A DNA stretch of 64,000 bases from Pirellulales bacterium (GTDB lineage: Bacteria; Planctomycetota; Planctomycetia; Pirellulales; Thermoguttaceae). The stretch is from contig JAFGDS010000134.1 of assembly GCA_016931995.1 (NCBI GenBank), positions 1 to 64,000 on the forward strand. The letters run 5' to 3'. The translations under genes were made by a program, and so were the position numbers. Within the stretch, counting starts at the first letter, position 1. Each line of letters begins with the position of its first letter. Below the pieces are notes generated by a model. It saw only the letters and a list, made by a program, of their open reading frames with translations. It had not been told where the DNA came from and searched no databases. This document shows positions 4,264 through 43,143 of this stretch, piece after piece.

Positions 4264-4326
4264 CGGCCAAAGCTACCCTCCCCAACACTCTACGCCATGG
4301 GCGGAGCCTCGGGGAACGAGACTTCA

Positions 4327-4456
4327 AGCCTATCCCAAACCCCCATCCCTGCTCGCGCGTCATCCTGAGCGTAGCGAAGGATCTCGTTGGCGATAAAAGA
4401 GTTCAGATGCTTCGCTTCGCTCAGCATGACGGTGTTGTCCGGGTTCTGGGATAGGC
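4327..4456. repeat. Composite repeat: outer inverted repeat around a CATCCTGAGCG element
   Basis: An outer inverted pair, AGCCTATCCCA...ACCC at 4327 and GGGT..TGGGATAGGCT at 4441-4456, encloses a CGTCATCCTGAGCG...AGCATGACGG element at 4358-4432. Related inner elements recur at 17364-17481, 44156-44230, 48442-48526 and 62170-62197. It fills the gap between two minus-strand genes. Confidence 0.65.
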
Positions 4457-4504
4457 TCTTGGACCCCATGCATGGGGGGGCAATTGGCGGCAGCACGCCC
4501 CGGC

Positions 4505-8428: not shown

Positions 8429-8666
8429 GAATAGCTCCTTTTCTCTGGGACTCGACAAAAGTGTATCCAACGAACCCCATCCGGCGACCGGCGCCGGCGG
8501 GCGGACGCGCAACCTAAAAGGGAATAGTGTATCCTACCCCAAAACTCGGGATTGGACAGCGGGAGGGGCGGAAAACCGTCCGGATGGGACGCCCCCCCGT
8601 GGAATCGATTCGACCCGCAAATCCGAAACCAACCCAATTCGTCCCCCTCGTCCACGATCGCCGCAT

Positions 8667-9077
8667 CTACCGCGAGCTTTCGCCCATCGACGCGGGATAG
8701 ACCGTTTGCACGGAACCGCGGATCTGGGTATTCGGCGCGGGCTCCTGCCCGCCCGCCGGCTGCTCGACAAAGGGATTGCGGATCCGCAACGGCCGGACCG
8801 GGCTCGCCTGGAGCCGCGGGCTGCCGGCCCGGGGAGCCGAAAACTCGGCAACCGGCGGCCAGGGGAAGGGGCTCCAGCCGTAGGGCCGGGCGATCGGCCG
8901 GCTGTAGTAGACCGGCGGATGCACGGCGAAGTACGGCGGGCTTTCCCCAACACAGCCCGAACGGGACCAGACGCCACCCCATGCCCAATCCCAATAAGCC
9001 CCACCGCCAAACGCCGGGACGCCCGTGCTGAAAGCCGCCACCACCAACGCAAGTCCGAACGAGACACGAATCCTCAT
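8667..9077 (-). CDS. Small exported hypothetical protein
   Basis: The 136-residue protein starts with a clear signal peptide (MRIRVSFGLALVVAAFS, cleavage probably after residue 20-24). The mature part is rich in Trp, Tyr, Pro and Gly, such as YWDWAWGGVW and PPVYYSRP, and looks low-complexity and secreted. I recognise no family. The ATG at 9077 has GAGGTGG about seven bases before it, whereas the longer frame upstream has no such site. It lies on the same strand as the DUF3467 gene, 238 bases ahead of it. Confidence 0.62.
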   Translation of the reverse strand: MRIRVSFGLALVVAAFSTGVPAFGGGAYWDWAWGGVWSRSGCVGESPPYFAVHPPVYYSRPIARPYGWSPFPWPPVAEFSAPRAGSPRLQASPVRPLRIRNPFVEQPAGGQEPAPNTQIRGSVQTVYPASMGESSR

Positions 9078-9224
9078 CGAAGCCACCTCATGTTGCGCCC
9101 ATCGGGAAACCTCCGACCAAACCGCGACCCATCCTACTCCGCATGGATGCCCAAACAACCCTCCCCGCATGGGGGAGCGGGGGGGCTAGTGTAGTGATTC
9201 ACGCTGTTGGGGTCTTATTCAGTG

Positions 9225-9301
9225 AGTGCCACTGGCTCTGCCGGTGCGGGATTCCACGCGATTCCCCGCGACGGCTCGCACTGGCAGAGCCAGTGGCACT
9301 C
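9225..9301. repeat. Inverted repeat GAGTGCCACTGGCTCTGCC
   Basis: Two perfect 19-base arms (9225-9243 and 9283-9301) surround a 39-base loop. Related elements are at 14521-14585 and 28512-28583, always between genes. Confidence 0.75.
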
Positions 9302-9312
9302 GCCCCACGCCA

Positions 9313-9621
9313 TCACGCCGGCGGCACGTCCCGAGGCACGGAACCCGCGTTGGGCGGTTCGCTCGGCTCGTCCGCGTCCTGGGCGTCTGGGGAAACGGCG
9401 TCCGGCACGCCGCTGTTGGGCAAGTCGGCGGGAGCGTTCTTGCCGGGCGGCGCCGGCGAAGCGGACTCCAGTTCGGGCATGGTATAGGGCAGGTTGGAGC
9501 CGGGTACCTTGGGGATCTCGAAGACGACCGTGCCCAGATCGTCGGCCGATTCCCGGCGACCGCACCCGCCCAGCGCGCCCCAGCACCCAACCAACGCCAA
9601 CAACCACCCGAGGCGGACCAT
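9313..9621 (-). CDS. Small lipoprotein
   Basis: This 102-residue protein has a short hydrophobic signal ending in the lipobox LGGC, giving a lipidated cysteine at residue 20. The remainder is rich in Pro, Asp, Glu and Ala and probably disordered. No family is recognised. It lies between two palindromic repeats (9225-9301 and 9669-9730) and shows ordinary GC-rich codon use. The start at 9621 is the only one that gives a complete signal peptide. Confidence 0.58.
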   Translation of the reverse strand: MVRLGWLLALVGCWGALGGCGRRESADDLGTVVFEIPKVPGSNLPYTMPELESASPAPPGKNAPADLPNSGVPDAVSPDAQDADEPSEPPNAGSVPRDVPPA

Positions 9622-9668
9622 GCCTTGTCACTCCCCGTCAAGTCGCCCGTGATACAATGCGGTTCCCC

Positions 9669-9730
9669 CGTGGCACGGCCGCCCTCGGCCGTGCATATTG
9701 CTCGGCACGGCCGAGGGCGGCCGTGCCACG
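9669..9730. repeat. Perfect 26-base inverted repeat
   Basis: Arms at 9669-9694 and 9705-9730, starting CGTGGCACGGCCGCCCTCGG, are exact complements with a 10-base loop. It lies between the divergent small lipoprotein and queG genes and has no adjacent T-run, so it is more like a mobile palindrome than a terminator. Confidence 0.7.
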
Positions 9731-9816
9731 GGACAAAATTCGCATGACGATGTCGTCCAGGTTCCAGGATAGGTTCTCATTCTACCCATCTCGCGGCCTT
9801 CGCGCCACCCCGTTCC

Positions 9817-10878
9817 ATGGATTCCGCCGAACTAACCGACGCGCTGAAAACCGAGGCGCGGCGGCTGGGCTTCGCCCTGGCCGGCGTCGCCCCGGCGATT
9901 GCGCCGCCGGAGCACGGGCGGTTGCGGGCGTGGGTGGCCGCGGGGTGCGCCGGCGAGATGGGGTTCTTCGCGTCGAGGGCGGAAGCCTACACGCACCCGC
10001 GGCACGTGCTGCCGGGCGCGCGGAGCCTCCTGATGTTGGGGCTGCCCTATGACGCCGTTGAGCCGTGTCCCGCTGGCCCAGGACAGGGGCGGATCGCCCG
10101 ATACGCCTGGGGAGCGGACTATCACGGGCTGATCCGCGCCCGACTCGACGAGCTGGCCCGGTTCCTTCGCCGGCTCGCGCCCGACGCGCGGACCCGCGGC
10201 GCGGTCGACACCGCGCCGCTGCTGGAGCGCGAATTCGGCCAGATGGCCGGACTGGGTTGGATCGGCCGCAACACGTTGTTGATCAACCCGGAGCTCGGAA
10301 GCTGGTTCTTCCTGGCCGCGCTTCTGACGACCGCCGCGCTTGTGCCCGACGGACCGTGTTCGCCATCGCGAGAGGACGGCTGCGGCCCATGCCGCGCGTG
10401 CGTCGAAGCCTGTCCGACCGGAGCGCTCTCGCCCGACGGCCAGGTGGATGCGCGCCGCTGCGTGAGCTACCTGACGATGATACACGCCGGACCGCTCCCG
10501 CCCGAGCTGCGCGCGAAACTGGGCGATCGCCTGTTTGGCTGCGACGCCTGCCAAGAGGTCTGTCCCTGGAATCGGGCGCAATCGACGCCGGCGCCGTCGG
10601 TGGACGCGGCGTTGTCCCCCATGGACGGCGCTAACCCAGTCGATCTTGTCGAGCTGTTGGGTCTCGACGACGCGGCCTTTCGCGCGCGGTTTGGCCCAAC
10701 GCCGTTGGGCTGGGCCGGGCGAGCCCGCGTGGTCCGCAACGCGTGCGCGATTCTGGCCCATCGACCGACCCCCGCGGCCAGGCCCGCGCTGGCGGCCCGC
10801 CTGGCCGTCGAGACCGATCCGGAGGTCCGCCGCGAACTCGAAGCGGCGCTGGCGGCGACGACCTCGCCGCGATTGTAG
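9817..10878 (+). CDS. queG: Epoxyqueuosine reductase QueG
   Basis: The 353-residue protein reduces epoxyqueuosine to queuosine in tRNA, using cobalamin and two [4Fe-4S] clusters. The clusters are visible as CGPCRACVEACP (about residue 189-200) and CDACQEVCP (about 244-252). The N-terminal half matches the cobalamin-binding QueG fold, with GLGWIGRNTLLINPELGSWFF, and the C-terminus has a short HEAT-like helical tail. Length is normal. The catalytic Asp region, RGAVDTAPLLERE, is intact. No other queuosine genes are in the window. Confidence 0.88.
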   Translation: MDSAELTDALKTEARRLGFALAGVAPAIAPPEHGRLRAWVAAGCAGEMGFFASRAEAYTHPRHVLPGARSLLMLGLPYDAVEPCPAGPGQGRIARYAWGADYHGLIRARLDELARFLRRLAPDARTRGAVDTAPLLEREFGQMAGLGWIGRNTLLINPELGSWFFLAALLTTAALVPDGPCSPSREDGCGPCRACVEACPTGALSPDGQVDARRCVSYLTMIHAGPLPPELRAKLGDRLFGCDACQEVCPWNRAQSTPAPSVDAALSPMDGANPVDLVELLGLDDAAFRARFGPTPLGWAGRARVVRNACAILAHRPTPAARPALAARLAVETDPEVRRELEAALAATTSPRL

Positions 10879-10962
10879 GAGGCGACTCCCGTCGCCGATG
10901 GCCTGGGATCGAGATTCCATCGGCGACAGGAGTCGCCTCCCACAGATAGAGTCGCCTCCTAC
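10875..10962. repeat. Repeat containing GTAGGAGGCGACTCC units
   Basis: AGGAGGCGACTCC...GGAGTCGCCTCC forms an inverted repeat, followed by a third partial copy, GAGTCGCCTCCTAC. It overlaps the stop codon of queG. Together with the palindrome at 11001-11025 it occupies most of the 317-base gap to the next gene. Confidence 0.6.
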
Positions 10963-11000
10963 AGTTGCCGTCGGGTTTTGTCGGGCTTATCGACGGAAAG

Positions 11001-11025
11001 CGGCGACAAGTCGCCGCACTCCAAG
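11001..11025. repeat. Second copy of the GCGGCGAC/GTCGCCGC palindrome
   Basis: Matches the core of the element at 6569-6602. It lies upstream of the predicted promoter of the GH106 gene. Confidence 0.6.
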
Positions 11026-11035
11026 GGGCCGATTG

Positions 11036-11063
11036 TTGCTTTGCGCGGCCCAGTCTGTATGAT
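11036..11063 (+). promoter_or_regulatory. Possible promoter of the GH106 gene
   Basis: TTGCTT at 11036-11041 and TATGAT at 11058-11063 are 16 bases apart, giving a leader of about 125 bases before the ATG at 11196. Confidence 0.35.
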
Positions 11064-11195
11064 GGGACTGACCGTGTGAACCGAGCGCCCAGCCGCTTGC
11101 GGCTTCGCAACGCGGAGGCGCGGTCCGTGGCTCTCGTCGGAGGTGCAACCCGTGCGAGTGACAATGACGTGGACAACGAACCGCGAGGTAAGCAC

Positions 11196-14100
11196 ATGAG
11201 CACTCTGACAAGAAGACGGGGGCGATTCGTTCTAGCGGCGATCCTCGTAGCCCTGGGCGCGCCGCGCTGCGCGCTCTCGGAAACGACGTGGACGGAAGCC
11301 TTCCGCGCTCCGCCGGCCGAGGCCAGGCCGTGGACGTACTGGTGGTGGCTCAACAGCAACGTCACCCGCGAGGGAATCACCCGCGACCTCGAGGCCATGA
11401 AGCGCCAGGGCATCCAGGGCGTGATGGTCTTCAACGCCGGCGGGGGCGACACGCCCAGCGGGCCGAAGTTCCTCAGCCCCGAGTGGAAGGAACTCTTCGC
11501 CTTCGCATTGAGCGAGTTGGACCGGCTCGGCATGGAGGCCAGCGTCAACCTCTGCGACGGCTGGTGCGCCGGCGGACCGTGGATCCCCGCCGAGGCGGCC
11601 AACAAGAAGCTCGTGTGGTCCGAGCTACAGACGGACGGGTCCCAACGGCTCTCGAAGATCCTGCCCGCGCCCAGCGCGTTTGACGGCTTCTATCGCGACG
11701 TGGCCGTGCTGGCCTATCGCGAGAAGACGCCCCGGCCTGTGCAACCGGCGGCGGTCCGCACGAATTCGCCGTACCATGGCCCCGATTATGAATATGCGTG
11801 GCTGCCCGACGACGCGGCGGACGGCGACCCGAACACGATGTGGCGGCCCCGCGTCGCGCCCACGGCCGAAGCGCCCGTATTGCTCGATTTCGAATACTCC
11901 GAACCCTTGACCGCTTCAAGCCTTTATCTGGCAGGTGACGCCAAAGGCGGCCCGCGAGCGTGCGAGCTTCAGGCGTCGCCGGACGGCAAGACGTTCAAGA
12001 CCGTGCTTTCGTTCGACGCGCCCGCCGGAAAGCCGCAAACGCTGGGTTTCCCCGAGACGACGGCCAAGGTGTTCCGCCTGGTGATCCGCTCGGTCCACGG
12101 GCCCGACGCCCGCGTGGCCGAAATGTGGCTCTTGCGCGCCGACGACGAGCCGTACTTGCGCCCCGGGATCAAGTGGTGGCTCTTCAAGTCCGGCAACCGG
12201 AGCTTCTGGCACCAACCGCGGCAAGGGCCGGCCGTCATGCGGGAGGAATACCCGCCGGACGGCGCGGTCGATTGCCAGAGCGCCGAGGTGGTCGATCTCA
12301 CGTCGAAAATGGACGCCCAGGGCAAGCTCGAATGGGACGTGCCCGAGGGACGTTGGACAATCCTGCGTTTCGGCTACACGCTCGAGGGCCAGCGGACCCG
12401 CTGCTCCTCGACGGTGATCGGCTACGAGGCCGACATGCTCGATCCGCTGGGCATCGAGACGCACTTCAAGCATTGCGCCGAGCCCATTCTTGAGGCGGCC
12501 GGCGCCCACGTCGGCAAGACGCTCAAGTTTTTTCACGTGGACAGCTACGAGATCGGGGCGGACGTGCAGGGCCAGCAACCCACGTGGTCGGCGGCGTTCG
12601 TCGAGGAATTCCGCGCGCGGCGCGGCTACGACCCGCTGCCCTATCTGCCAGCCATGGCCCGGCGGATCGTGGATGATCGGACCAAGACCGCGCGGTTCCT
12701 CTGGGACGTGCGGATGACGATCAGCGACCTGATGATCGAGCGGTTCTTCGGACGACTGTCCGAGCTGGCCCACGCCCGGGGCGTCGGGACGCACTGCGAG
12801 ACGGGCTACGGGACGTATCCGCATCCGCAGTTCGACGGCCTTCGCGCCGCGGGGCAGAACGACGTCACGATGGGCGAATTCTGGTGGGGCACCGACGTGA
12901 TGACGCTGTCGGATCACTACGCCAACGCCATCCGGTCGGTCGCCTCGCCCGCGCACGTCTACGGCCGGCGGATCGTCCAGGCCGAATCGTTCACCTCGTG
13001 GGTCCATTTCCAGGAATACCCCGCCACGCTCAAACCGGTTGGCGATCGGGCCTTCTGCGACGGGCTCAACCGCGTCATGTTCCACCAATACACGCACCAG
13101 CCGAACGAAGACCGGCCGGGCTACCAGTACTTCGCCGGCACGCACATCGACCGGCACGTCACCTGGTGGCCCATGGCCAAGCCGTTCCTCGACTATCTGG
13201 CCCGATGCCAGGTGTTCCTGCAAAACGGCCGGTTCCACGCCGACGTGTGCTACTTTTACGGCGAAGGCTCGGCGAAGTACGTGCCTTCAAAGCAGTTTCT
13301 TCTGCCGCCGCTTCCGCCGGGCTACAACTTCGATTGCGTCAACGCCGACGTGCTTCTGAATCGGACGACTGTCCGCAATGGGCGGATCGTCGTCGCGGAC
13401 GGGCCGAGCTACCGCCTGCTCGTCCTGCCGACCGAGCGGACCATGTCGCCCGCCGTGCTGGGCCGGATTGGCGAACTGCTCGAAGCGGGGGCCGTCGTGC
13501 TGGGCGACCGACCGCTGCGGGCGCCGGGTCTGACCAACTGGCCCGCGTGCGACGAAGAGCTTGCGACCCTGGCCGGCGCCCTTTGGGGCGAAAACCCGGG
13601 CCCAAGCGGCCGGCGCACCGTGGGCAAGGGGCTCTTGGTGTGGGGCCAGACGCCCGGCGAAGTGCTCGCCGAAATCGGCGTCCCGCGGGATTTCGAGGCC
13701 GGCCCCGGCAACGAGGGGTTTGACTTCATCCACCGCACGATCGACGGGGCCGACGTCTATTTCGTCGCGCATCAGGCCGACGCCACGAAGGCGGTCGAGT
13801 GCGTCTTCCGCGCAAGCGGGCGTCAGCCGGAGCTTTGGGACCCGGTGAGCGGCGACTCGCGCGATCTGGCCGAGTTCTCGATGAGCGACGACGGCCGCAT
13901 CGGCGTGCCCATGACGTTCGCGCCGTATCAAAGCTTCTTTGTCGTCTTCCGCAAGGAGCCCGCGGCCGTGCTGGACGGCTGGCGGTTCTCCCCGCTCATC
14001 AAGCCAGTGGCCGAGATCGCCGGGCCGTGGACCGTGGCCTTTGATCCGGCCTGGGGCGGGCCGGAGCAGGTGGTCTTCGAGAAGCTCGACGATTGGACCG

Positions 14101-14486
14101 CGCGGCCCGAGGAGGGCATCAAGTTCTACAGCGGAACGGCCACGTATCGCAACGCGTTCGACCTGCCGGACCCGCCGGCCGGGGCGGGCCCGCGCCGATT
14201 CCTCGACCTGGGCAAGGTGAACCACGTCGCCCGGGTGCGACTCAACGGCAAGGACCTCGGCGTCCTCTGGACCGCGCCGTGGCGGGTGGACGTGACCGAC
14301 GCGATCAAGGCGAAGGGCAACCGGCTCGAGATCGAAGTGGTCAACACCTGGCTCAACCGCCTGGTGGGCGACGCCCATCTGCCGCCCGAGAAGCGACTGG
14401 CCAAGACCAACGCCCGGTACCCCGTCGGTCAACCCCTGCTGCCTTCCGGCTTGCTTGGCCCGGTGACGTTGCAGGTTGGGGATTAG
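11196..14486 (+). CDS. GH106-like glycoside hydrolase, exported
   Basis: The 1096-residue protein carries a signal peptide (about 1-27, RRGRFVLAAILVALGA) and so acts outside the cytoplasm. The catalytic part begins with WTYWWWLNSNVTREGITRDL, the characteristic opening of the GH106 alpha-L-rhamnosidase family, which removes rhamnose from plant or algal polysaccharides. An inserted discoidin-like segment lies near residues 215-310 and a beta-sandwich lies at the C-terminus (about 985-1095, with YRNAFDLP and VARVRLNGKDLGVLW). The start is supported by GAGGT seven bases upstream and by the signal peptide. Rhamnosidase specificity is inferred from the family; related members may act on other sugars. 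Confidence 0.78.
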   Translation: MSTLTRRRGRFVLAAILVALGAPRCALSETTWTEAFRAPPAEARPWTYWWWLNSNVTREGITRDLEAMKRQGIQGVMVFNAGGGDTPSGPKFLSPEWKELFAFALSELDRLGMEASVNLCDGWCAGGPWIPAEAANKKLVWSELQTDGSQRLSKILPAPSAFDGFYRDVAVLAYREKTPRPVQPAAVRTNSPYHGPDYEYAWLPDDAADGDPNTMWRPRVAPTAEAPVLLDFEYSEPLTASSLYLAGDAKGGPRACELQASPDGKTFKTVLSFDAPAGKPQTLGFPETTAKVFRLVIRSVHGPDARVAEMWLLRADDEPYLRPGIKWWLFKSGNRSFWHQPRQGPAVMREEYPPDGAVDCQSAEVVDLTSKMDAQGKLEWDVPEGRWTILRFGYTLEGQRTRCSSTVIGYEADMLDPLGIETHFKHCAEPILEAAGAHVGKTLKFFHVDSYEIGADVQGQQPTWSAAFVEEFRARRGYDPLPYLPAMARRIVDDRTKTARFLWDVRMTISDLMIERFFGRLSELAHARGVGTHCETGYGTYPHPQFDGLRAAGQNDVTMGEFWWGTDVMTLSDHYANAIRSVASPAHVYGRRIVQAESFTSWVHFQEYPATLKPVGDRAFCDGLNRVMFHQYTHQPNEDRPGYQYFAGTHIDRHVTWWPMAKPFLDYLARCQVFLQNGRFHADVCYFYGEGSAKYVPSKQFLLPPLPPGYNFDCVNADVLLNRTTVRNGRIVVADGPSYRLLVLPTERTMSPAVLGRIGELLEAGAVVLGDRPLRAPGLTNWPACDEELATLAGALWGENPGPSGRRTVGKGLLVWGQTPGEVLAEIGVPRDFEAGPGNEGFDFIHRTIDGADVYFVAHQADATKAVECVFRASGRQPELWDPVSGDSRDLAEFSMSDDGRIGVPMTFAPYQSFFVVFRKEPAAVLDGWRFSPLIKPVAEIAGPWTVAFDPAWGGPEQVVFEKLDDWTARPEEGIKFYSGTATYRNAFDLPDPPAGAGPRRFLDLGKVNHVARVRLNGKDLGVLWTAPWRVDVTDAIKAKGNRLEIEVVNTWLNRLVGDAHLPPEKRLAKTNARYPVGQPLLPSGLLGPVTLQVGD

Positions 14487-14520
14487 CGCGTGTTCCGCAT
14501 AATCCTCGCGGGCACGTAGG

Positions 14521-14585
14521 GTGCCACTGGTTTTGCCAGTGTATCAACAGTCTCGCCGGACAAGCACTGGCAGAGCCAGTGGCAC
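14521..14585. repeat. Inverted repeat GTGCCACTGG...CCAGTGGCAC
   Basis: Related to 9225-9301 and 28512-28583. It lies between the convergent GH106 and tatC genes and could form a stem bidirectionally. Confidence 0.6.
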
Positions 14586-14672
14586 ACGGCGAGCGTGAGG
14601 GTGTCCAGGAATTCCGGACTCCGAAAATGGCGAAACGCGCTCTCTTCGCGCGAAGGTCGCTCCGGGCCGTCC

Positions 14673-15875
14673 TCACGCCGCCGCGTGGGGGCCGCGGCGG
14701 CGGGGCATGAGCTTGCACAGGAGAATGCCGCCGAAGTAGAGAAACGTCAACGGCACGGCCATCAGCAACATGCTGTACGGATCGGCCGGCGTGAGAAACA
14801 TCGAAATGATGAAGATCACCAAGATGGCGATGCGGAGCTTCGACCGATACGCCTCGACGCTGAAGATTCCGATCCGCTCCAGAAACAGCATCACCAGCGG
14901 CAATTGGAAGCTGATGCCGAAACCGATCGGCAGCACGAGCACGAAACCGAGCCATTCGCTGATCCGCGGGTCGAGATCGATGCCCAGGCCGCGGTTGAAG
15001 CTGAACAGAAACGCCAGCACCGGCTCGAAGACGAAGAAAAACGCCGTCGCCGCGCCCAACAGGAACAACCCGAGGCTAAACGGCAAAAAAACGTGGACGT
15101 ATTTTTTCTCGTGCGGATACAGCCCGGCCGCCACGAAGGACCAGATTTGGTAAAAGATGTACGGGCTGGCCAGGAGCGTGCCGACCAGAAGCGACGCCTT
15201 GACGTAGATCGAAAACGCCTCGTGGACGCTCAAGCCCTTCGCGCGGATCCGCGAATCCTCCTCCGTCGGATGCCAGAGGAATATCCGGATGAGCCCCTGG
15301 CGGGTGTAGAGGGGCTCGACGTCCTCATCCGCTTGCCCCGTGGAGCCGCCGTTCGACGCAACGCCGTTGGCGGCCGCGTCGGCGCCGTCCGGCGCGACGG
15401 GTCCTGCCGCCGGGGGCGAGCCGGCCGGCGGCAGCTCGATCTCGCCGAACCGCTCCGGGTAAACCCGCTGCAACTCGGAAAGCACCATCCGCGGATCGAC
15501 CAGGGCCTCGGTGGGCAGAAGGTGCTCCTCGGCCACCATCGAGGCGATCCGCTCCGGCGAGGCCGGCAAGGGCTCGCCCGACGCCTCCATGGCCGCCAGC
15601 GCCTTCCGGGTGTCCTCAGTGGCCTGGTTTTCGTAGTAGCTCGTCAGGGCGTTCTCCAACGGCGATTGGATGAAATCGACGACCGAACCGCCGATGAACA
15701 ACCCCAAGACGCACCCGGCCACCAGCGCCAACACCGACTTGAACAGGCACCCGCGAAGCTCCTCGAGGTGCTCCCCGAAGGTCATCGTGCTGCCGGCAAA
15801 CAGGTCTTCGTCGGAGGGACGTTGTCGCATGGGCCGCGGCGCGCGGGACGAGAGGATGGGCGCGGGGGGCTTCAT
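14673..15875 (-). CDS. tatC: Twin-arginine translocase subunit TatC with large insertion
   Basis: This 400-residue membrane protein is the receptor subunit of the Tat system, which exports folded proteins. The N-terminus has the TatC motif MTFGEHLEELRGCLFKSVL, and several membrane helices follow, with the conserved FYQIWSFVAAGLYPHEK and FGISFQLPLVMLFL. Standard TatC is about 240-260 residues. The extra length is an insertion between the first and second helices (about residues 60-200), acidic and rich in Pro, Gly and Ala, which would be periplasmic. Start choice is uncertain: a second ATG 15 codons in is possible. No tatA or tatB is nearby. It diverges from manA. Confidence 0.85.
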   Translation of the reverse strand: MKPPAPILSSRAPRPMRQRPSDEDLFAGSTMTFGEHLEELRGCLFKSVLALVAGCVLGLFIGGSVVDFIQSPLENALTSYYENQATEDTRKALAAMEASGEPLPASPERIASMVAEEHLLPTEALVDPRMVLSELQRVYPERFGEIELPPAGSPPAAGPVAPDGADAAANGVASNGGSTGQADEDVEPLYTRQGLIRIFLWHPTEEDSRIRAKGLSVHEAFSIYVKASLLVGTLLASPYIFYQIWSFVAAGLYPHEKKYVHVFLPFSLGLFLLGAATAFFFVFEPVLAFLFSFNRGLGIDLDPRISEWLGFVLVLPIGFGISFQLPLVMLFLERIGIFSVEAYRSKLRIAILVIFIISMFLTPADPYSMLLMAVPLTFLYFGGILLCKLMPRRRGPHAAA

Positions 15876-15964
15876 GCCCTGGCCGCCGTGCCCTATAGTA
15901 AGCCCTGTATCATAGCACTGCGGGGGCCGTGCGGCAACAAACGGGCGGGGAGGAGACTCACGCG

Positions 15965-16957
15965 ATGATCCCCTGGCATCCCCTTCGCTTCCGACCACTC
16001 TACAAACAATACCTGTGGGGGGGGCAAAAACTGCGAACTGTCCTCGACCGCCCGCTCGATCCGAACGGCGTCTTCGCCGAGTCCTGGGAAGTCTGCGATC
16101 ACGGGGCGGATCAAAGCGTGGTCTTGGCCGGCCCTCTGACCGGTCGGACATTGCGCGAGCTGGTCGTCGAACACGGCCGCGAACTCCTGGGCGACGCGGG
16201 CTGGCGAGCGCGGCAGGCTTTGCCTTCGCGACGTTTTCCACTGCTGCTGAAGTATCTCGACGCCCGTCAGGATCTCTCGCTGCAGGTGCATCCCAACGAC
16301 GCGATGGCCGCCCGGCTCGATCCGCCCGACCTGGGCAAGACCGAGGCCTGGGTGGTGCTCGAGTCGGAGCCGGGAAGCGTGATCTACGCCGGCTTGAAGC
16401 CCGGCGTGGACCGGCCCGCGCTGGCCAAGGCGATCGACGAGGGAACGTGCGCCGACTGCCTGCACCAGTTCGAGGCCCAGCCGGGCGATTGCCTTCTGAT
16501 TCCCGCCGGAATGGTCCACAGCCTGGGCCGAGGCAACCTCGTGGTCGAGATCCAGCAGTCCAGCGACACGACCTTCCGTCTGTTCGATTGGAACCGCCTG
16601 GGACCCGACGGCAAGCCCCGCGCCCTGCACGTGCAACAAGGACTCGATGCCGTCGATTTCCGGCTTGGGCCCGGCGCTGCGCGGCGGGGGCTTGTGCAAC
16701 CGGAGAACGGACCGGCCGAGCTGGCTCGCTGCCACGCGTTCGTGCTCCACCGCCACGCGTTGACCGTGCCGCGGGTACTGGGCGGCGACGACCGATTCCG
16801 GATGTTGACCGTTCTGGAAGGCGCTTTGACGCTCGACGGTGACCCGCTGGACGAACCCCTCGCGCGCGGCGGCTCCGCCCTGCTGCCGGCGGCCGCGGGA
16901 CCCGTCCGCGCCCTCCCGCGCGGCCGGGCCGTTTTTTTGGAGACCCATTTGCCGTGA
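15965..16957 (+). CDS. manA: Mannose-6-phosphate isomerase, class I
   Basis: The 330-residue cytoplasmic enzyme interconverts fructose 6-phosphate and mannose 6-phosphate with one zinc ion. Visible family motifs are YLWGGQKL near the N-terminus, LQVHPND with the zinc-binding Gln and His, KTEAWVVLE with the Glu ligand, and the later HSLGRGNLVVEIQQSSDTTFRLFDWNR. The length fits the short bacterial (Bacillus-type) form. The ATG at 15965 has GGAGGAG about ten bases upstream. A short lipoprotein gene follows on the same strand. Confidence 0.85.
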   Translation: MIPWHPLRFRPLYKQYLWGGQKLRTVLDRPLDPNGVFAESWEVCDHGADQSVVLAGPLTGRTLRELVVEHGRELLGDAGWRARQALPSRRFPLLLKYLDARQDLSLQVHPNDAMAARLDPPDLGKTEAWVVLESEPGSVIYAGLKPGVDRPALAKAIDEGTCADCLHQFEAQPGDCLLIPAGMVHSLGRGNLVVEIQQSSDTTFRLFDWNRLGPDGKPRALHVQQGLDAVDFRLGPGAARRGLVQPENGPAELARCHAFVLHRHALTVPRVLGGDDRFRMLTVLEGALTLDGDPLDEPLARGGSALLPAAAGPVRALPRGRAVFLETHLP

Positions 16958-17097
16958 GCGCGGGCCAGCGACGACGGGCGTCGGCCACCGCCCCCTTCCG
17001 GGGGAAATGGGAGGGAAAGCTGCTCTTCCCGTCGCGTCGCGCAGCGTCTACAATCCGGCACGCTCTCCTTCCCCAGCCCGGTCCGGCGGACGCGGCG

Positions 17098-17331
17098 ATG
17101 CTCAGGCGAATCCTTCTTTTGTCGTCGGGGTTTGTGGCCGTGCTGCTTTGTGGATGCCCGACGACGGGCTTGCCGAACCTGTGCCACCCGGGCACGGCCG
17201 CCCAACAGCGGCTCTGGGCGGAGCAGTTCGATCCGTACCCCGCGACGGACGTCGGACCGGACGTAAGCGGCCTCCGCCCCCGCGGATTCGAGCGGTCGCC
17301 CTCCTACCCCCCGCCTCCCGTCGCCCGCTAG
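17098..17331 (+). CDS. Very small lipoprotein
   Basis: The 77-residue product starts with a hydrophobic signal and the lipobox LLCGC, so the cysteine near residue 19 should be lipidated. The mature part is Pro/Arg-rich and ends PPPPVAR. It is not assigned to a family. The frame opens 140 bases upstream, overlapping the end of manA, but the ATG at 17098 gives the complete signal peptide and is preferred. Confidence 0.5.
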   Translation: MLRRILLLSSGFVAVLLCGCPTTGLPNLCHPGTAAQQRLWAEQFDPYPATDVGPDVSGLRPRGFERSPSYPPPPVAR

Positions 17332-17666
17332 TCGCTAGTACCGGGGCCACCGTCGCCGCGATCGGTTATCCCGGGCGGAGCATTGGTCATCCCGGGCGAA
17401 GCGTTGGTCACCCTGGGCGGAGCGAAGGATCTCGTTGGCGCCAAAGCGTTTGAGATGCTCCGCCTTGCTCGGCGCGACGGACGTGCGTCCGGGGGTCCGG
17501 GGCAAACCCGACGCGCCACGGGGCTGTCATCCCTGCCTGGGGTATGGTAGGGTGGGAGTTCCGACGACGAGGACGGCATCGACCTTCCCGCGGCGGTCGT
17601 CCCGGTTTTCGCACGGCGAAAGTGGGATCGTCCCCTTCGATGCGATGCCCTTTACCCTTCACCGCC
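17332..17666. other. Intergenic region filled by repeats
   Basis: This 335-base gap holds three tandem 21-base units and a downstream arm of the CATCCTGAGCG family (17364-17481). I see no supported gene in the remaining bases. Confidence 0.5.
17364..17481. repeat. Three tandem 21-base units plus GAAGGATC element
   Basis: Units at 17364-17384, 17385-17405 and 17406-17426 follow the pattern GGTyAyCCyGGGCGrAGCrww. The third runs into a GCGAAGGATCTCGTTGGCG...GAGATGCTCC element related to the one at 4358-4432. The tandem part appears only here. Confidence 0.65.
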
Positions 17667-37746: not shown

Positions 37747-40209
37747 TCATTCCACCGGCAATCGCCTCCACTCCTCGATATTCCGCCTCTCCACCTCCTC
37801 CATCCCCTTCCGCTTGGCCAGGAAGTGCTCGTACTTCTTGCGATCTTCGTCCGACCAGGCATTGGCCTCGACGTAGTCGCCGCAGAAGGGAACCAGAAGG
37901 TCGATCCAGCAGGCCAGCTTGTCCGTCTCCTCGCGCGAGAGCCGCGCGTCGCCGTGGCCTTCGTTCACGAGGGTCATCAGGCGGCTCCTCGCCGCGCCGG
38001 CCGCGTAGGGCGGCAGCATGGGCGGGGCCGATTGGGCACTGATCCAGTTGACGATCGGGCCGTCCGGGTCGCCTTGGTAATAAGGAATCGGCTGGTCCAT
38101 GCCGGTCGTCGTCCGGCTGGCCGTCAGGACAAGATACGCCCGGTTCCACCGGCGCTTCGCCGCCCGATCGAGCACCTCGGCGCCCAGCAGGCTGAAGGCA
38201 GCGTCGCCCGGCTTGTCGGACAAAGCCTCTGTATCAGAAAGCAGTGGAAGCGCCGACGCCGCCGAGGGCTCGACGTTGTGGCAACGCGTGCAATGGCGGT
38301 CCAGGATCGGCTGGATCTCGCGGCGGAAGCTGAAACCGCGGGCCGGCCCATAGAAACCGGCAAGTTGTTCCGCGCCCGCCGCGAGCGCCAATGAAGATGA
38401 AACCATCGCCGGCGGGGCCGCGTTCTTGTCTTCGTGACAGCCCACGCACGAGGCCGTTTCGCCCGGCTGAAGCGTCGTCCAGCTCCGCATCGTCTGGATG
38501 GCGTAGCCCCGCTCGTCGATCACCTGGAAATAAACGGGCGTGCGGGCCGGGACGGCGAAATACACGGACCCGTCGTCGCGGATCGTCGCCTCGCCCAGCA
38601 CGGTCTTCGGGTCCCATGCGCCGTTGCCGATGGCGATGGGCGTCGAGATCATCGCCTCGCCGCCGGGACCGCGATTCTCGTTGCTGCCGACGCCCGCCGG
38701 GCGATACTCGATCGCCACGACGCGAAGCTGCCTGGCCGTCCCGCGCGGCACGCCGGCCAGCCCCGGACCTTCGTACACGTCCTGCACGTAGCAGAGGCCT
38801 TGCGTCTGGCGATAATCGACGACGCTGGCTCGCACGGGCGGTTCCGACCGGGGCGCGAGCGGGACGGGCTGGTTGCACGAGATCCGCTCGTCGCTGGCCA
38901 AGAGTTCCCGCCGGCCGTCCCGGTCCATCCAATAGATGGCAAACGGCCCGGTGGCCCCGTCCGGCTTGAAGGCCACGAGGAACTCCGTCTCGCTCAGCGG
39001 ATACGGATACTGGAACTGGTCGCCCGATTGGGCGTAGAAGTCCACGCGCACGGCCTCGGGCTGGCGCGGCGGGGCGATCAACTGGACGCCTTCGTTCTCC
39101 TGCCGGCCGCGCGAGGGATCGACGAGGCCCAGCCAGCCCTTTTGCAGTGTGTGGTGGCCCGTCAAGATCGCGACGACCTTGCCCGTGCCGGGGATCGCCC
39201 GCGCGTGCACGAGCGACGTGGGAAACCACGAGTTGTTGCCGTAAAGCTCCGTCTGCCGCGTGCCGTCGGGGTTCATCTCGAACAGGCCCTGCACGTACAT
39301 CTGGCCGCGGTCGCTGTATTCCCAGCGGGTGTAAAGGACGCGTCCGTCGGGTGTCACCGTGGGATAGTTCGTGTGCACCTGGTCGAACCCGAGCCGGCGG
39401 AGGTAGCGGCCGTCCGCGTCGCAGGTGTACAGATTGCTCACCTCGGTCCACCAGCAATCGACCGTCTGCACGCACCGGGTCGAGCTGAAGATGATCTGCC
39501 CGCCGGGGGCGTACGCGCCTTCGTAGTCGGCAAAGCCCAGGCCCGAGGTCAACTGCCGCACGCGGCCGGTCGCCACGTCGTAGTCGTAAAGATGAAAATC
39601 GTCCTCGTCGAGCGATTTCTTCCAGGCAAAGAGGATGCGGCCGCCGTCGTACGACACGTCCGGATCGCGCAGCACGCCGCCGGGATCGTCCAGAAGCGCG
39701 CGGACCTCGGCGAAGAGGCCGTTCATCGTCAACAGGCACAGACTCCCGCCGGGCACGAATGTCCGCTCGTGTTGCGCGTCGGACTGGCCCTCGGTATAGG
39801 CGTAGTGCGACCCGCCCAGGTCGTAATGCTTGGTGAAGACGATCCGCGGCGTCTTTTCCTGGACCGTACGCAGCCGGGCCGCGCGGCGCTTGATACAGGC
39901 GTCGCGATAGAGCCGCTCCCATCGCGGGTCGTCCGGGCCGACGTTGTCCAGTTCGACGAGCCTCGCCCGCAGGTCGTCCCCGCCGGTGGCCAGTTCCTCG
40001 ACAATCGCCCCGATCGCTTCCCGATAGGACGTTCCCCGCTCGACGCCGTCCTGCGCCCGCCAATCGGCCAGGACTTCGCCGGGCAGGTCGGCGACCGCTG
40101 CTTCGACCGGTCCGTGTTCCGGATCGTGGCTCGTCGTCTCGCCCCGCGCGCCCGCGACGAGGCCCAGCGCAACCAGCACGCCCCAACCGATCGCATGTCG
40201 CACGGGCAT
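37747..40209 (-). CDS. Exported PD40-propeller/cytochrome protein, hydrazine-synthase-alpha-like
   Basis: The 820-residue protein has a signal peptide (MPVRHAIGWGVLVALGLVAGARG) and repeated PD40/TolB-like propeller blades (about 180-480), such as PDVSYDGGRILFAWKK, YPTVTPDGRVLYTRWEY and EGAYAPGGQIIFSS. Two c-type haem sites follow, CVGCHE (about residue 613) and CTRCHN (about 660). This order matches the hydrazine synthase alpha-like proteins found widely in planctomycetes, most of which are not anammox bacteria. The role is probably periplasmic redox chemistry, but the substrate is unknown. GGAGTGGAGA precedes the ATG at 40209. Confidence 0.75.
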   Translation of the reverse strand: MPVRHAIGWGVLVALGLVAGARGETTSHDPEHGPVEAAVADLPGEVLADWRAQDGVERGTSYREAIGAIVEELATGGDDLRARLVELDNVGPDDPRWERLYRDACIKRRAARLRTVQEKTPRIVFTKHYDLGGSHYAYTEGQSDAQHERTFVPGGSLCLLTMNGLFAEVRALLDDPGGVLRDPDVSYDGGRILFAWKKSLDEDDFHLYDYDVATGRVRQLTSGLGFADYEGAYAPGGQIIFSSTRCVQTVDCWWTEVSNLYTCDADGRYLRRLGFDQVHTNYPTVTPDGRVLYTRWEYSDRGQMYVQGLFEMNPDGTRQTELYGNNSWFPTSLVHARAIPGTGKVVAILTGHHTLQKGWLGLVDPSRGRQENEGVQLIAPPRQPEAVRVDFYAQSGDQFQYPYPLSETEFLVAFKPDGATGPFAIYWMDRDGRRELLASDERISCNQPVPLAPRSEPPVRASVVDYRQTQGLCYVQDVYEGPGLAGVPRGTARQLRVVAIEYRPAGVGSNENRGPGGEAMISTPIAIGNGAWDPKTVLGEATIRDDGSVYFAVPARTPVYFQVIDERGYAIQTMRSWTTLQPGETASCVGCHEDKNAAPPAMVSSSLALAAGAEQLAGFYGPARGFSFRREIQPILDRHCTRCHNVEPSAASALPLLSDTEALSDKPGDAAFSLLGAEVLDRAAKRRWNRAYLVLTASRTTTGMDQPIPYYQGDPDGPIVNWISAQSAPPMLPPYAAGAARSRLMTLVNEGHGDARLSREETDKLACWIDLLVPFCGDYVEANAWSDEDRKKYEHFLAKRKGMEEVERRNIEEWRRLPVE

Positions 40210-40410
40210 TCTCCACTCCGCGATGTCAGTGCAAAACAAGAGGGAAGACGTGCCGGCCGCGTCCCGATTCGCCTGGGCGAGGGCCGAAGATCATCCCCTC
40301 TCCCCTCGGGAGAGGACTAGCGTGAGGGCACACTACGCCTCCATGGTAGCAGAAGGCGGCGGGGGCGTTCAACATGCCCGGGTCGAGACCGTGGAGCGGC
40401 GTTCCGTGGT

Positions 40411-42861
40411 CTAACCGACACAAGACTCTTTCTCGTACCAAGGAAGGTCCATTTGCCACAACTCCGAATGTATCCGTGAGATATCTGCTGCGGCAATCGC
40501 GGAGATGCGCAAGTCGAGACGACTATCACTCGGACACTCTTCAGAGCCCACGCGTATCATCCGATCCTCCCAGTATGATACGGTAGCTTCCTCGCCACAA
40601 GATCCGCGCAATGCAGCGCGAACATTCCTTCCGTCCGCCCGTTCGACGTTTCGGCCTGCAGTAGAGCCTTTGACACGGAGAAGATTGTGCATCCCGCGCT
40701 CACCACAAAATGTCATAGTCGCGAGTCTCACCGATGTATCATCGTTTCGGCCAAGGAGCCAACAATGAAAGTTGATGAGGTAGGGGTTTCGCGGCAGTAT
40801 TTCCTTGTCCCAGCCGTGAGGTAGGTTGCCGGCGGCTGCCCTGCCAAAAGTCGTCATGAATGAACTCTCGTCACTTGCTTGGACTCCCGTCTCCGGGAAC
40901 GCTGCCGGGTCATTGGCGAATCGTCTTCCATACTGAGACGCGACATAGTCACTTGCCAATAGGCTCATCAATTCAGCAAACTGGTAGAGGAATAGGGGAT
41001 CGTGCGTAACGAAAACAACATCAGTGCCCTCGATAATTGCGTAGATCATTCCGTTCACCAAGAGTTTATCGCCGGCAAAGAGCAATGGATCGTGCTCATT
41101 CACCTCACCGTGCTCCGCCAAACGTCTTGCACGAATACCTCCATAGTGACAGGCAATCACCTCCATTTCTCCGGGGCCACATTCGCGACCGTGATCTTCA
41201 CGCACGCGGTTTCGAATTACCTTTCCGAATTGCCTTCTCAAGGCGACAAGCGCGAGGTAGTATCCGAATCCGTATTGATACGGGACATCACCCCAGGAAT
41301 CGAAGACCAACATCTTCTCCAATGCCGTTCGTTCGCCGCACGTCAGACCCTGTAACACCTCTGCGTCGAGGGTCGACTCACGAATTGAAGTAGACGAAAT
41401 AAACCGTCTCGAAATCAGCTCCCTTCTGACGCCCTCCGGAAGCCCAAGAACTACGCCTCCGTCAACAACAAACGGAGCAGCATTGTCAAAGAAGCGAATT
41501 GCCCTCGCAAACTCCGTCCAGTCGATGCTTTTCCACTGCGGCTCGGCTGCAAAGCTGAGTCGCATTGGGAGGTAGAAATCGGCCAGTTGCATTCCAGGCG
41601 TTCCAGCAACGTCTTTGCAGAGCGATACGTCGATGCCTACTGCCCGAAACCTTTGGACTTCCTGCAAGGCGTACTCTAGATCGACGGACGGGCCCGCAAA
41701 GGGCCCTAACGCAACGTGCCGGTCGTACCCCACCAGTGCGCGGCCGCACATCTCGTGAGCAAAAGGCGGAGAGATTGCCAAGTGGCAGTTCCGGCCGTCG
41801 AGAAAATCGCAATTGCAGCCGCCAGTTTTGCCTTTGACCTCAAGAAGTCGTCGCATTTCTCGCGCCACGCGGAAGTCAAGACGCGCGAACTTCATTCTTG
41901 CGTCATCACCCGCAAGTCGGTGACAGGCGATTGTCACTGGGCTGGAGTGTTCGCGAAGAAGCCATTCGGCAAATCGTCGAGGCAAGTTAAGAACTGACCT
42001 CCTGCTGCCTTCGAAGCAGTCGTTTGCGATCTCCTTTTCAACATTCGACGTGTACTCAATTAGGTTCTCCGGAGTGTCGGCATAAGCCTCAGCAATTAGC
42101 AGGCATCTGAAGTGCGTGTCGAGAAGGTAAATGAACTTGCGGAATTGTTCCAGAGGGTCACGGTCACGGGTCAAGATTATGGTTTCACTGCCAGTCAGAA
42201 CTGCATGAGTCACCGCCGTCACGACCAAGTCTTCATCGGCCGCGAAATTGGGCTTCATGTGATCCGCGAGCCCCTTCTTGGCCAGCACGGCCCCTCGATC
42301 GCCCAAACGGCTCTGGAGAATGGACGTCAACGTCTTGTCCGACGACTCGCGGTTGTCTTGCTCAGTGCGTCGGACCTTGAGGTGAATTCCAACACACTTT
42401 CGGGCCGACAGAAGTGAAACGTAATAGCGTACCGCACTGTGGATGTCATCCGGCCAGCTGTCTTGATTGAGGAACACAATAGACGAATTGCCACGTTCCT
42501 TTGCAGTAACGAGGACATCTCGGAAATGCGCATTTGCAAAAGGAGCAGCAATCCAATCGCGAAGTTCTCCCCAAACGAGCGGAGTGATGACGATCGTCCT
42601 TGTCAGAAGCGAGTCGAACACCTCCAATGGAATTTCGTGACGATGAAGAAAAGACGCGTCGAGGAAGAAGGTGGCATTGTCTGAGGTGGACTGAACGACC
42701 TCTGTCGAGAACTTCTTCCACGAGGTTGGGCCCTCTTGACTGTTCCAGCAGAGCGCACCGATCATCAGCCGATTGGGTGCTGCGGGAACAACCGGCATCA
42801 CAATTTCAGTCGCGTCGGGGCGACGTTGATCGAAGAAACTGAGTGTACTGTCTCTGCGCAT
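40411..42861 (-). CDS. Duplicated PIN-like nuclease protein, unrecognised architecture
   Basis: The 816-residue protein contains two copies of one unit. Each has a PIN-like domain (62-260 and 462-645) with acidic residues in the expected places: D68, E99, D209/D211, D233 in the first, D467, E495, D598, D621 in the second. Each is followed by a domain of unknown type (about 291-405 and 678-800) that shares LLxVKGxT and DGRN with identical internal spacing. Matching residues in the two halves are 388-399 residues apart. PIN domains are metal-dependent RNases. GC content here is much lower than around it (about 48 percent in a sampled line), suggesting horizontal transfer. ATG at 42861; a GTG 21 codons upstream is possible. 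Confidence 0.68.
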   Translation of the reverse strand: MRRDSTLSFFDQRRPDATEIVMPVVPAAPNRLMIGALCWNSQEGPTSWKKFSTEVVQSTSDNATFFLDASFLHRHEIPLEVFDSLLTRTIVITPLVWGELRDWIAAPFANAHFRDVLVTAKERGNSSIVFLNQDSWPDDIHSAVRYYVSLLSARKCVGIHLKVRRTEQDNRESSDKTLTSILQSRLGDRGAVLAKKGLADHMKPNFAADEDLVVTAVTHAVLTGSETIILTRDRDPLEQFRKFIYLLDTHFRCLLIAEAYADTPENLIEYTSNVEKEIANDCFEGSRRSVLNLPRRFAEWLLREHSSPVTIACHRLAGDDARMKFARLDFRVAREMRRLLEVKGKTGGCNCDFLDGRNCHLAISPPFAHEMCGRALVGYDRHVALGPFAGPSVDLEYALQEVQRFRAVGIDVSLCKDVAGTPGMQLADFYLPMRLSFAAEPQWKSIDWTEFARAIRFFDNAAPFVVDGGVVLGLPEGVRRELISRRFISSTSIRESTLDAEVLQGLTCGERTALEKMLVFDSWGDVPYQYGFGYYLALVALRRQFGKVIRNRVREDHGRECGPGEMEVIACHYGGIRARRLAEHGEVNEHDPLLFAGDKLLVNGMIYAIIEGTDVVFVTHDPLFLYQFAELMSLLASDYVASQYGRRFANDPAAFPETGVQASDESSFMTTFGRAAAGNLPHGWDKEILPRNPYLINFHCWLLGRNDDTSVRLATMTFCGERGMHNLLRVKGSTAGRNVERADGRNVRAALRGSCGEEATVSYWEDRMIRVGSEECPSDSRLDLRISAIAAADISRIHSELWQMDLPWYEKESCVG

Positions 42862-43050
42862 GGCTCTACCAAGAAGACGTGATATTGTTGTCTCCGGTTC
42901 GCGCGCCTGCGACGAGCGGGGCACGTCTTTTCAGGTCCCCCTCAGGCTGCGTCAAACAGTCTACCTGACCGCCAGTGTTGCTCCAAGTCTTTGCCCCGAG
43001 GGGGCACCCTATGTTGGCCTAGGGCAACGCGGGGAAAAAAGCAGATTCCG

Positions 43051-43088
43051 GGGGCGCCACTGCTGGACCGGCCAGTAGTGGCACCCCC
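43051..43088. repeat. Inverted repeat GGGGGCGCCACTGCTGG/CCAGTAGTGGCACCCCC
   Basis: Near-perfect arms around a short centre. Related to 6760-6787 and 18724-18753. It lies between the low-GC PIN-like gene and miaA, in a gap where no gene is seen. Confidence 0.65.
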
Positions 43089-43143
43089 ATTTCCGCCGTA
43101 ACGCATTCCCGAACACGTTCCAACGTGTTTCCCGCGGGGGCAG

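What the first reader, a model, noticed from the sequence alone, without database searches (positions are those of the whole stretch)
40411..42861. Low-GC 816-residue protein with a duplicated PIN-like nuclease plus unknown domain
Two halves align at a constant period: D68/D467, E99/E495, D209/D598, D233/D621, then LLxVKGxT (339 and 727) and DGRN (355 and 743), all 388-399 residues apart. Each half is a PIN-like fold followed by a domain I cannot name. The gene stands alone between normal-GC genes and has a much lower GC content, so it was probably acquired. Tandem PIN units in one chain with this extra domain may be an undescribed nuclease or defence effector.
Basis: partly seen in the sequence, partly recalled or inferred. 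Interest (0 to 1): 0.8.

Follow-up and report, generated by a model that had tools for sequence, protein, structure and literature searches.

The report
Single-chain pair of PIN-like nuclease units
A bacterial gene joins in one chain two copies of an undescribed PIN-like nuclease unit, one with an intact set of catalytic acids and one that has lost part of it; it looks like a built-in nuclease pair carried as a lone, acquired gene, and its biological role is unknown.

Summary
The 816-residue protein at 40411-42861 (-) has two homologous halves (HMM-HMM probability 99.8%, E 2.5e-29). Each half looks like a PIN-like nuclease domain, split by a helical insertion, followed by a conserved domain of unknown fold. 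The PIN call rests on an acid tetrad D68/E99/D209/D233 intact in 12 of 12 full-length first-type units, and on a profile scan in which 3 of the 4 PIN catalytic columns pick exactly these residues out of 407. Structure models were low-confidence and only lean that way. Pfam, NCBIfam, PHROGs, PADLOC and PDB sequence searches gave no credible family. Relatives occur patchily (13 of 396 genomes of the order); the complete ones outside the two-unit form are single units of 403-480 residues. The two-unit form was seen in 4 genomes, one split over two contigs and one decayed. The second unit lacks the catalytic Glu but is as conserved as the first, so I read the protein as a covalent active/degenerate pair, like the SMG5-SMG6 composite PIN. 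It is solitary and of foreign composition. A defence role is open but unproven.

The parts
40411..42861 (-). Gene for the 816-residue two-unit protein; ATG start at 42861, stop codon at 40411-40413
   Evidence: start supported by the conserved N terminus in G836
42076..42681 (-). Unit 1, PIN-like domain (residues 61-262): D68, E99, D209, D233
   Evidence: tetrad in 12 of 12 full-length first-type units; in-register match to PF01850 proteins; fold matches of a weak model
42247..42474 (-). Helical insertion inside the unit 1 PIN-like domain (residues about 130-205), with near-invariant Y147, L150, R154, G197
   Evidence: conservation; helices predicted at low confidence
41647..42009 (-). Unit 1, C-terminal domain (residues about 285-405), motif LLEVKGKTGGxNxDxxxGRNxH; fold unknown
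   Evidence: conserved in single-unit relatives; no credible library match
40897..41541 (-). Unit 2, PIN-like domain (residues 441-655), partly degenerate: D467 and D621 kept, Glu position lost
40462..40794 (-). Unit 2, C-terminal domain (residues about 690-800), motif LLRVKGSTAGRNVERADGRN
43020..43110 (-). Strong hairpin between miaA and this gene, with a run of six U nine bases after the stem; a possible miaA terminator, so the gene may have its own transcript
   Evidence: RNA fold -51.3 kcal/mol, z -5.46, 0 of 200 shuffles as good; the consensus terminator scan did not list it
40245..40254 (+). Left arm of a 10-bp exact inverted repeat (AAGACGTGCC) flanking the low-GC segment; meaning unknown
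   Evidence: only 2 exact matches in the window, inverted, 0 of 100 shuffles with 2 or more; wider arms 19 nt, 79%
42920..42929 (-). Right arm of the same inverted repeat

Best explanation
The protein is a metal-dependent nuclease of the PIN-like superfamily, most likely an endoribonuclease, built as a covalent pseudo-dimer. Unit 1 carries the complete acid tetrad and is the catalytic unit. Unit 2 has lost part of the catalytic set but is kept under equal constraint, and acts as a built-in partner that completes the substrate-binding surface or stabilises unit 1. The helical insertion in each PIN domain and the conserved C-terminal domain (KGxTxGRNTDxxGxRNxH) probably hold the two units together and grip nucleic acid. 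It moves between genomes as a lone gene. Shown here: two homologous units, the conserved tetrad in unit 1, its partial loss in unit 2, constraint on both (one pair of genomes), sporadic occurrence, foreign composition. Inferred: catalysis, RNA as substrate, unit-unit pairing, the role of the insertion and C-terminal domain, mobility, and any part in conflict with phages or mobile elements.
For: Homology of the halves. D68, E99, D209 and D233 in 12 of 12 full-length first-type units: 9 single-unit proteins and 3 first units. In an ungapped profile-profile scan of these 12 units against 23 PF01850 PIN proteins, the best unit column for the PIN first Asp, Glu and fourth acid/Asn is residue 68, 99 and 233 respectively, rank 1 of 407 each; the third Asp (residue 209) ranks 17. 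Predicted order strand-helix-helix-strand-helix-helix-strand-[helices]-helix-strand-helix after a first helix. For the PIN-core model the four best Foldseek rows are HARP RNase P (best E 4.2e-3), and the three best VIA-align rows are the human SMG6/EST1A PIN domain (Z 5.6, 5.5, 5.5; 104-108 residues, rmsd 3.7-3.9). Unit 2 is as constrained as unit 1 between the window and G836: 66.6% identity, pN 0.212, pS 0.70 over 308 codons, against 62.4%, pN 0.243, pS 0.745 over 436 codons. D233's counterpart is Asp in 4 of 4 second units, while the Glu column reads S and A in the two second units where it is aligned. Precedent in print: SMG5, an inactive PIN domain, completes the active site of SMG6 (PMC12923823, abstract and passages); Regnase-1 needs head-to-tail PIN pairing (PMC4772114, passages); HARP dimerises through helices inserted in its PIN domain (PMC8266387 passages; PMC10941002 section 15).
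Against: The AlphaFold2 models are poor (mean pLDDT 36.9 and 46.1), no Foldseek match reaches E 0.001, and the HARP rows have TM-scores of only 0.18-0.28. With the whole-unit model the best VIA rows are adenylosuccinate synthetase and DHFR, and PIN is fifth (Z 5.2 against 5.3); in the core search a DHFR row (Z 5.3) ties with the PIN rows. Gapped HMM-HMM comparison with PF01850 gave probability 1%. Pfam, NCBIfam and PHROGs found no PIN family for the 7 members tried. In the profile scan the highest single window is out of register, and 44 of 500 column shuffles reach the score of the D68 window. No substrate or activity evidence exists.
Confidence: 0.5

Rival explanations
1. Anti-phage or anti-plasmid effector: a lone mobile gene whose nuclease is triggered by infection and cuts tRNA or mRNA of the infected cell or of the invader. 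(This adds a purpose to the best explanation rather than excluding it.)
For: Sporadic distribution (13 of 396 genomes of the order, 8 of 397 of the class, window included), foreign composition, mobile-type neighbours in some loci (phage tail, integrase and DUF5906 in G823; RepC in G956; DUF932, DUF6094 and SNF2 helicase in G266). Some neighbours match defence models: the G266 methyltransferase mad2 (2.2e-16), the G599 PLD-like protein DrmC (1.7e-8), the G956 SNF2 helicase DpdE/ZorD/DrmD (to 2.6e-76).
Against: No PADLOC match for the protein. SNF2 helicase models are matched by helicases in general (recalled), and these matches are single genes, not whole systems. No neighbour family recurs beside the unit. 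The window's own neighbours are ordinary. Mobile cargo can do other things.
Confidence: 0.33
2. Both units are active nucleases, two independent active sites in one chain.
For: Unit 2 keeps D467, D621 and an acid at 598; in the window and G836 an acid (E495, D) lies one residue from the Glu column.
Against: The Glu column itself is S or A, G266 has no acid next to it, and the D209 column reads G, D or A in the three second units aligned.
Confidence: 0.12
3. A tRNA- or rRNA-processing enzyme working like HARP RNase P, with inserted helices that pair two PIN domains and grip structured RNA.
For: HARP structures are the four best Foldseek rows for the core model. HARP also has helices inserted in the PIN domain and uses basic residues there (PMC8266387 passages); the unit insertion has a near-invariant Arg.
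Against: No Pfam match of any kind for the 7 members tried. HARP's four essential acids are all Asp, D7/D138/D142/D161 in Aq880, whereas these units have a conserved Glu, and the window protein has no acid four residues after D209. A processing enzyme would not be expected in a few percent of genomes.
Confidence: 0.1
4. Not a nuclease: a Rossmann-like fold whose acids do something else, or a decaying orphan.
For: Poor models with DHFR and adenylosuccinate synthetase rows of similar Z; decayed or broken copies exist (G962, G836).
Against: Tetrad in 12 of 12 units with PIN-like register; nonsynonymous change far below synonymous.
Confidence: 0.13

Closest known systems
SMG5-SMG6 composite PIN (eukaryotic NMD endonuclease)
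   Same: An intact PIN paired with a catalytically deficient one; the same acid order D, E, D, D in SMG6 (D1251, E1282, D1353, D1392; PMC12923823 passages); SMG6 PIN is the best VIA row
   Different: There the pair forms between two proteins; here the two units are in one chain, each with an inserted helical part and an extra C-terminal domain. No sequence relation shown.
HARP minimal protein-only RNase P
   Same: PIN domain split by inserted helices; best Foldseek rows
   Different: About 23 kDa single unit forming dodecamers, four Asp and no Glu in the essential set; no Pfam match by the units
VapC toxins (PF01850)
   Same: Conserved D, E, D, D/N (PMC7180214 passages); in-register profile match, rank 1 at three of four positions
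   Different: Small proteins paired with an antitoxin; gapped HMM-HMM probability only 1%; here an 816-residue two-unit protein
Regnase-1 PIN head-to-tail dimer
   Same: Activity requires two PIN domains, one catalytic and one supporting (PMC4772114 passages)
   Different: Homodimer of an identical domain, eukaryotic

Membership tests
PIN-like superfamily | Four conserved acids D, E, D, D/N | tested here: met
   12 of 12 full-length first-type units; definition, given for VapC toxins, from PMC7180214 passages
PIN-like superfamily | Profile similarity to PIN proteins around the acids | tested here: inconclusive
   In register at ranks 1, 1, 17 and 1 of 407 columns, but gapped hhalign probability 1%, no Pfam PIN match, and 44 of 500 column shuffles reach the D68 window score
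PIN-like superfamily | Alpha/beta/alpha fold with parallel sheet and clustered acids | tested here: inconclusive
   Low-confidence models; PIN rows on top for the core model only
PIN-like superfamily | Metal-dependent nuclease activity | not testable with these tools
   Needs purified protein
HARP RNase P | Match to the HARP/PIN_5 family model | tested here: inconclusive
   No Pfam family at E 10 or better for any of 7 unit members; that Pfam holds this family is recalled, and remote members can be missed
HARP RNase P | Essential acids all Asp, two of them four residues apart (D138, D142) | tested here: not met
   Conserved Glu at 99; in the window protein the residue four after D209 is Val; HARP residues from PMC8266387 passages
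HARP RNase P | Helical insertion in the PIN domain | tested here: inconclusive
   Helices predicted between the Glu helix and the D209 helix, at low confidence
VapBC toxin-antitoxin | Small single-domain PIN toxin | tested here: not met
   816 residues here, 403-480 in single-unit relatives; open frames of the 23 PF01850 proteins used are 132-227 residues
VapBC toxin-antitoxin | Adjacent antitoxin gene | tested here: inconclusive
   No neighbour family recurs beside the unit; small frames of up to 81 residues overlap the gaps beside the gene in the window and were not tested
SMG5-SMG6 type composite PIN | One PIN completes the active site of another | not testable with these tools
   Only the sequence asymmetry of the two units was shown
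Known anti-phage systems (PADLOC-DB 2.0.0) | Match of the protein to a listed model | tested here: not met
   0 families at E 10 or better for the window protein; the relatives were not scanned

The most novel reading that the evidence does not exclude
A new bacterial nuclease family in which an active PIN-like unit and a degenerate one are fused in a single chain, so that a composite PIN active site, known in eukaryotic NMD as two separate proteins, exists here as one mobile gene with an undescribed nucleic-acid-binding domain.
Probability: 0.4. Interest if true: 0.68.

Novelty: new variant of a known kind. Interest (0 to 1): 0.5.

Why it matters
If right, it adds a family to the PIN-like superfamily that the libraries searched here miss, and gives a single-chain system in which the contribution of a degenerate PIN partner can be tested by simple mutation, a question just raised for SMG5-SMG6. 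The single-unit relatives supply natural controls. It also points to an uncharacterised lone-gene cargo scattered through this bacterial class.

Tried and rejected
Searches that led nowhere: phage and plasmid records by tblastn, six scans of viral contigs, two of genome contigs, PDB sequences with two profiles (best E 1.8 and 1.1, unrelated proteins), viral structure library (nothing at E 0.001 or better; weak rows include two flap/XPG-type endonucleases). Weak rows from other libraries not taken as relatives: NCBIfam best E 0.011 (a dehydrogenase, 1 of 7 members), PHROGs best E 0.36.

Considered and rejected: Argonaute relation (one Pfam row, Ago_Mid, E 0.17 in the full protein; none in the 7 unit members). 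A conserved operon: no neighbour family recurs beside the unit; a few generic families are shared between pairs of loci, and only in G599 did I note a gene overlapping the unit gene (PLD-like). Empty-site comparison through miaA: none of 29 relatives' miaA loci, which carry at most 1500 bases of flank, held the window's neighbouring genes, so the insertion could not be dated. Recent tandem duplication against fusion of two older paralogues: undecided (p-AU 0.146 for all six tandem units as one clade; second units form one branch at 91/98, not starred). Inverted repeat: I saw no target-site duplication by eye; the exact 10-mer is absent from 13 of 15 related loci, those of G836 and G962 among them, but one copy lies 98 bases upstream of the G433 gene, in the other orientation and inside a neighbouring frame, and one in L016 far from the gene.

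Rows dropped before counts: fragments G878, G762, G647, G794, G952 and G962 were left out of the 12-unit tetrad count and of the tree because they are partial. Of the 30 PIN loci fetched, 23 were used for the PIN profile; 7 (long-frame or partial matches) were left out. The neighbour scans used 93 selected frames (up to four each side, at least 110 residues) of 15 loci; L046, L054 and L055 were not in them, and both tables show 25 families only, of 86 and 83.

Full report
What was checked. The gene at 40411-42861 (-) encodes 816 residues. The halves are homologous: local score 197 against a maximum of 64 in 1000 shuffles; hhalign of 7 first-type units against 2 second-type units 99.8%, E 2.5e-29, 346 columns. 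Composition is foreign: GC 0.541 and GC3 0.583, against GC3 0.79-0.86 for argH, the HZS_alpha-domain gene, miaA and the MFS gene.

Relatives. One copy lies in its own genome. In 392 genomes of the phylum, the 7-row unit profile gave 4 at E 0.01 or better: the window, G266 and two marginal rows. In 397 of the class, a two-row profile gave 8; in 396 of the order, 13 at E 0.001; in family f115, 3 of 95; in family f5, 1 of 45; among relatives of G266, 1 of 99, G266 itself. These sets overlap and include the window's genome where it belongs. Nine full-length single-unit proteins of 403-480 residues show that the unit is a protein in its own right. The two-unit form is seen in the window, in G266 (835 aa, 27% identical), in G836 (62% and 67% identical in units 1 and 2, but split over two contigs with the break inside unit 2) and in G962 (two fragments with an internal loss). 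The phage, plasmid and viral-contig searches found no relative.

Is it PIN-like? For: D68, E99, D209 and D233 are present in 12 of 12 full-length first-type units. Against 23 PF01850 proteins from related genomes (23 of the 30 loci), a profile scan without gaps places the PIN first Asp on residue 68, its Glu on 99 and its fourth position on 233, each rank 1 of 407 columns, and the third Asp on 209 at rank 17. The core model, though weak (pLDDT 46.1, pTM 0.45), has a PIN-like order of elements. Its four best Foldseek rows are HARP RNase P, and its three best VIA-align rows are SMG6/EST1A PIN (Z 5.5-5.6); by description at least 13 of the 50 VIA rows are PIN domains, RNase P, Nmd4, Exo1 or a toxin (that Exo1 and Rv0301 are PIN-like is recalled). 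Against: the gapped HMM-HMM test failed (probability 1%), no library gave a credible match, the whole-unit model puts adenylosuccinate synthetase and DHFR first, with PIN fifth at nearly equal Z, the top single window of the scan is out of register, and 44 of 500 column shuffles reach the D68 window score. I put PIN-like homology at about 0.85.

The second unit. The Glu column reads S in the window and A in G266; the D209 column reads G, D and A in three second units; the E210 column is Asp in 3 of 3; D233's counterpart is Asp in 4 of 4. Yet it is not decaying in this pair: between the window and G836 unit 2 has pN 0.212 and pS 0.70, unit 1 pN 0.243 and pS 0.745 (synonymous sites near saturation). 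Second units form one branch (91/98, not starred), so the two-unit form may have arisen once; whether by duplication or by fusion of older paralogues is undecided.

Mechanism. The most economical reading is a covalent pseudo-dimer: unit 1 cuts and unit 2 supports. PIN domains with this division of labour are known: SMG5 completes SMG6 (PMC12923823, abstract and passages) and Regnase-1 needs a supporting PIN (PMC4772114, passages). HARP pairs its PIN domains through inserted helices (PMC8266387 passages; PMC10941002 section 15), and the units here have predicted helices at a comparable place with a near-invariant Arg. Catalysis, RNA as substrate and pairing are inferences.

Context. The gene stands behind a strong hairpin after miaA, with six U nine bases past the stem (z -5.46); the consensus terminator scan did not list it. 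A 10-bp exact inverted repeat brackets the low-GC segment at 40245 and 42929 (2 matches in the window, 0.11 expected); I saw no target duplication. It is absent beside the two nearest relatives; one single copy lies 98 bases upstream of the G433 gene in the other orientation. In 12 of 14 related loci the gene has lower GC than the rest of its locus (1 equal, 1 higher). No neighbour family recurs beside the unit, though a few generic families are shared between pairs of loci. One relative lies among phage genes (G823: minor tail protein, integrase, DUF5906), and others near RepC (G956) or DUF932, DUF6094 and SNF2 genes (G266).

Defence. PADLOC on 93 neighbours of 15 loci gave 86 families at E 1e-5, 25 of them shown. 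Scanning ten of these neighbours one by one: the G956 SNF2 helicase alone matches 45 families; the G266 methyltransferase matches mad2 (2.2e-16) and the G266 helicase DpdE weakly; the G599 PLD-like protein matches DrmC (1.7e-8); a G779 neighbour matches RT-Protease_XI (1.2e-7); 5 of the ten match nothing. So single defence-type genes occur near some copies, which keeps the defence reading open and made me raise it from 0.30 to 0.33, but I saw no complete system and did no control with random regions.

Literature. A search for tandem, duplicated, double, fused or two PIN domains returned 3 papers: SMG5-SMG6, Regnase-1 and HARP; I read passages of each. A search for 'PIN domains', 'two PIN domains', 'tandem' and 'bacteria' together returned none. 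Of four wider searches I saw the listings only, apart from passages of PMC7180214 and PMC12923823 and passages and one section of PMC10941002. Within these searches I found no description of this family; subscription papers are mostly not held and the 2017 classification of the superfamily could not be read, so prior description there is not excluded.

Verdict. A real two-unit protein of probable PIN-like kind, undescribed as far as these searches reach, with an intact and a degenerate unit. Function unproven.

Noticed in passing
window 40245-40254 (+) and 42920-42929 (-): Exact 10-bp inverted repeat AAGACGTGCC bracketing the low-GC gene; possible ends of a small mobile unit, but no target duplication seen and absent beside the two nearest relatives.
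   Followed up: partly
L018 (G599) 4069-5391 (-): A PLD-like protein (PF13091, E 2.1e-11; PADLOC DrmC 1.7e-8) whose gene overlaps the single-unit gene by 4 bases; possible partner in that genome.
   Followed up: partly
L003 (G266) 10349-17606: The two-unit relative of G266 sits between a DUF932 gene and a DUF6094 methyltransferase (PADLOC mad2, 2.2e-16), with an SNF2 helicase further on.
   Followed up: partly
L050 (G823) 8829-9848 (-): A 339-residue protein with no Pfam or PADLOC match lies 46 bases from a single-unit gene in a phage-like region.
   Followed up: partly
L045 (G836) end and L046 start: The nearest two-unit relative breaks inside unit 2 at the ends of two contigs; a repeat or insertion there, or an assembly break, is possible.
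   Followed up: partly
L052 (G962) 8630-9693 (-): A decayed two-unit copy with an internal loss between the start of unit 1 and the later part of unit 2.
   Followed up: partly
window 37747-40239 (-): Neighbouring 830-residue protein with a hydrazine synthase alpha middle domain (PF18582, E 1.1e-30).
   Followed up: no
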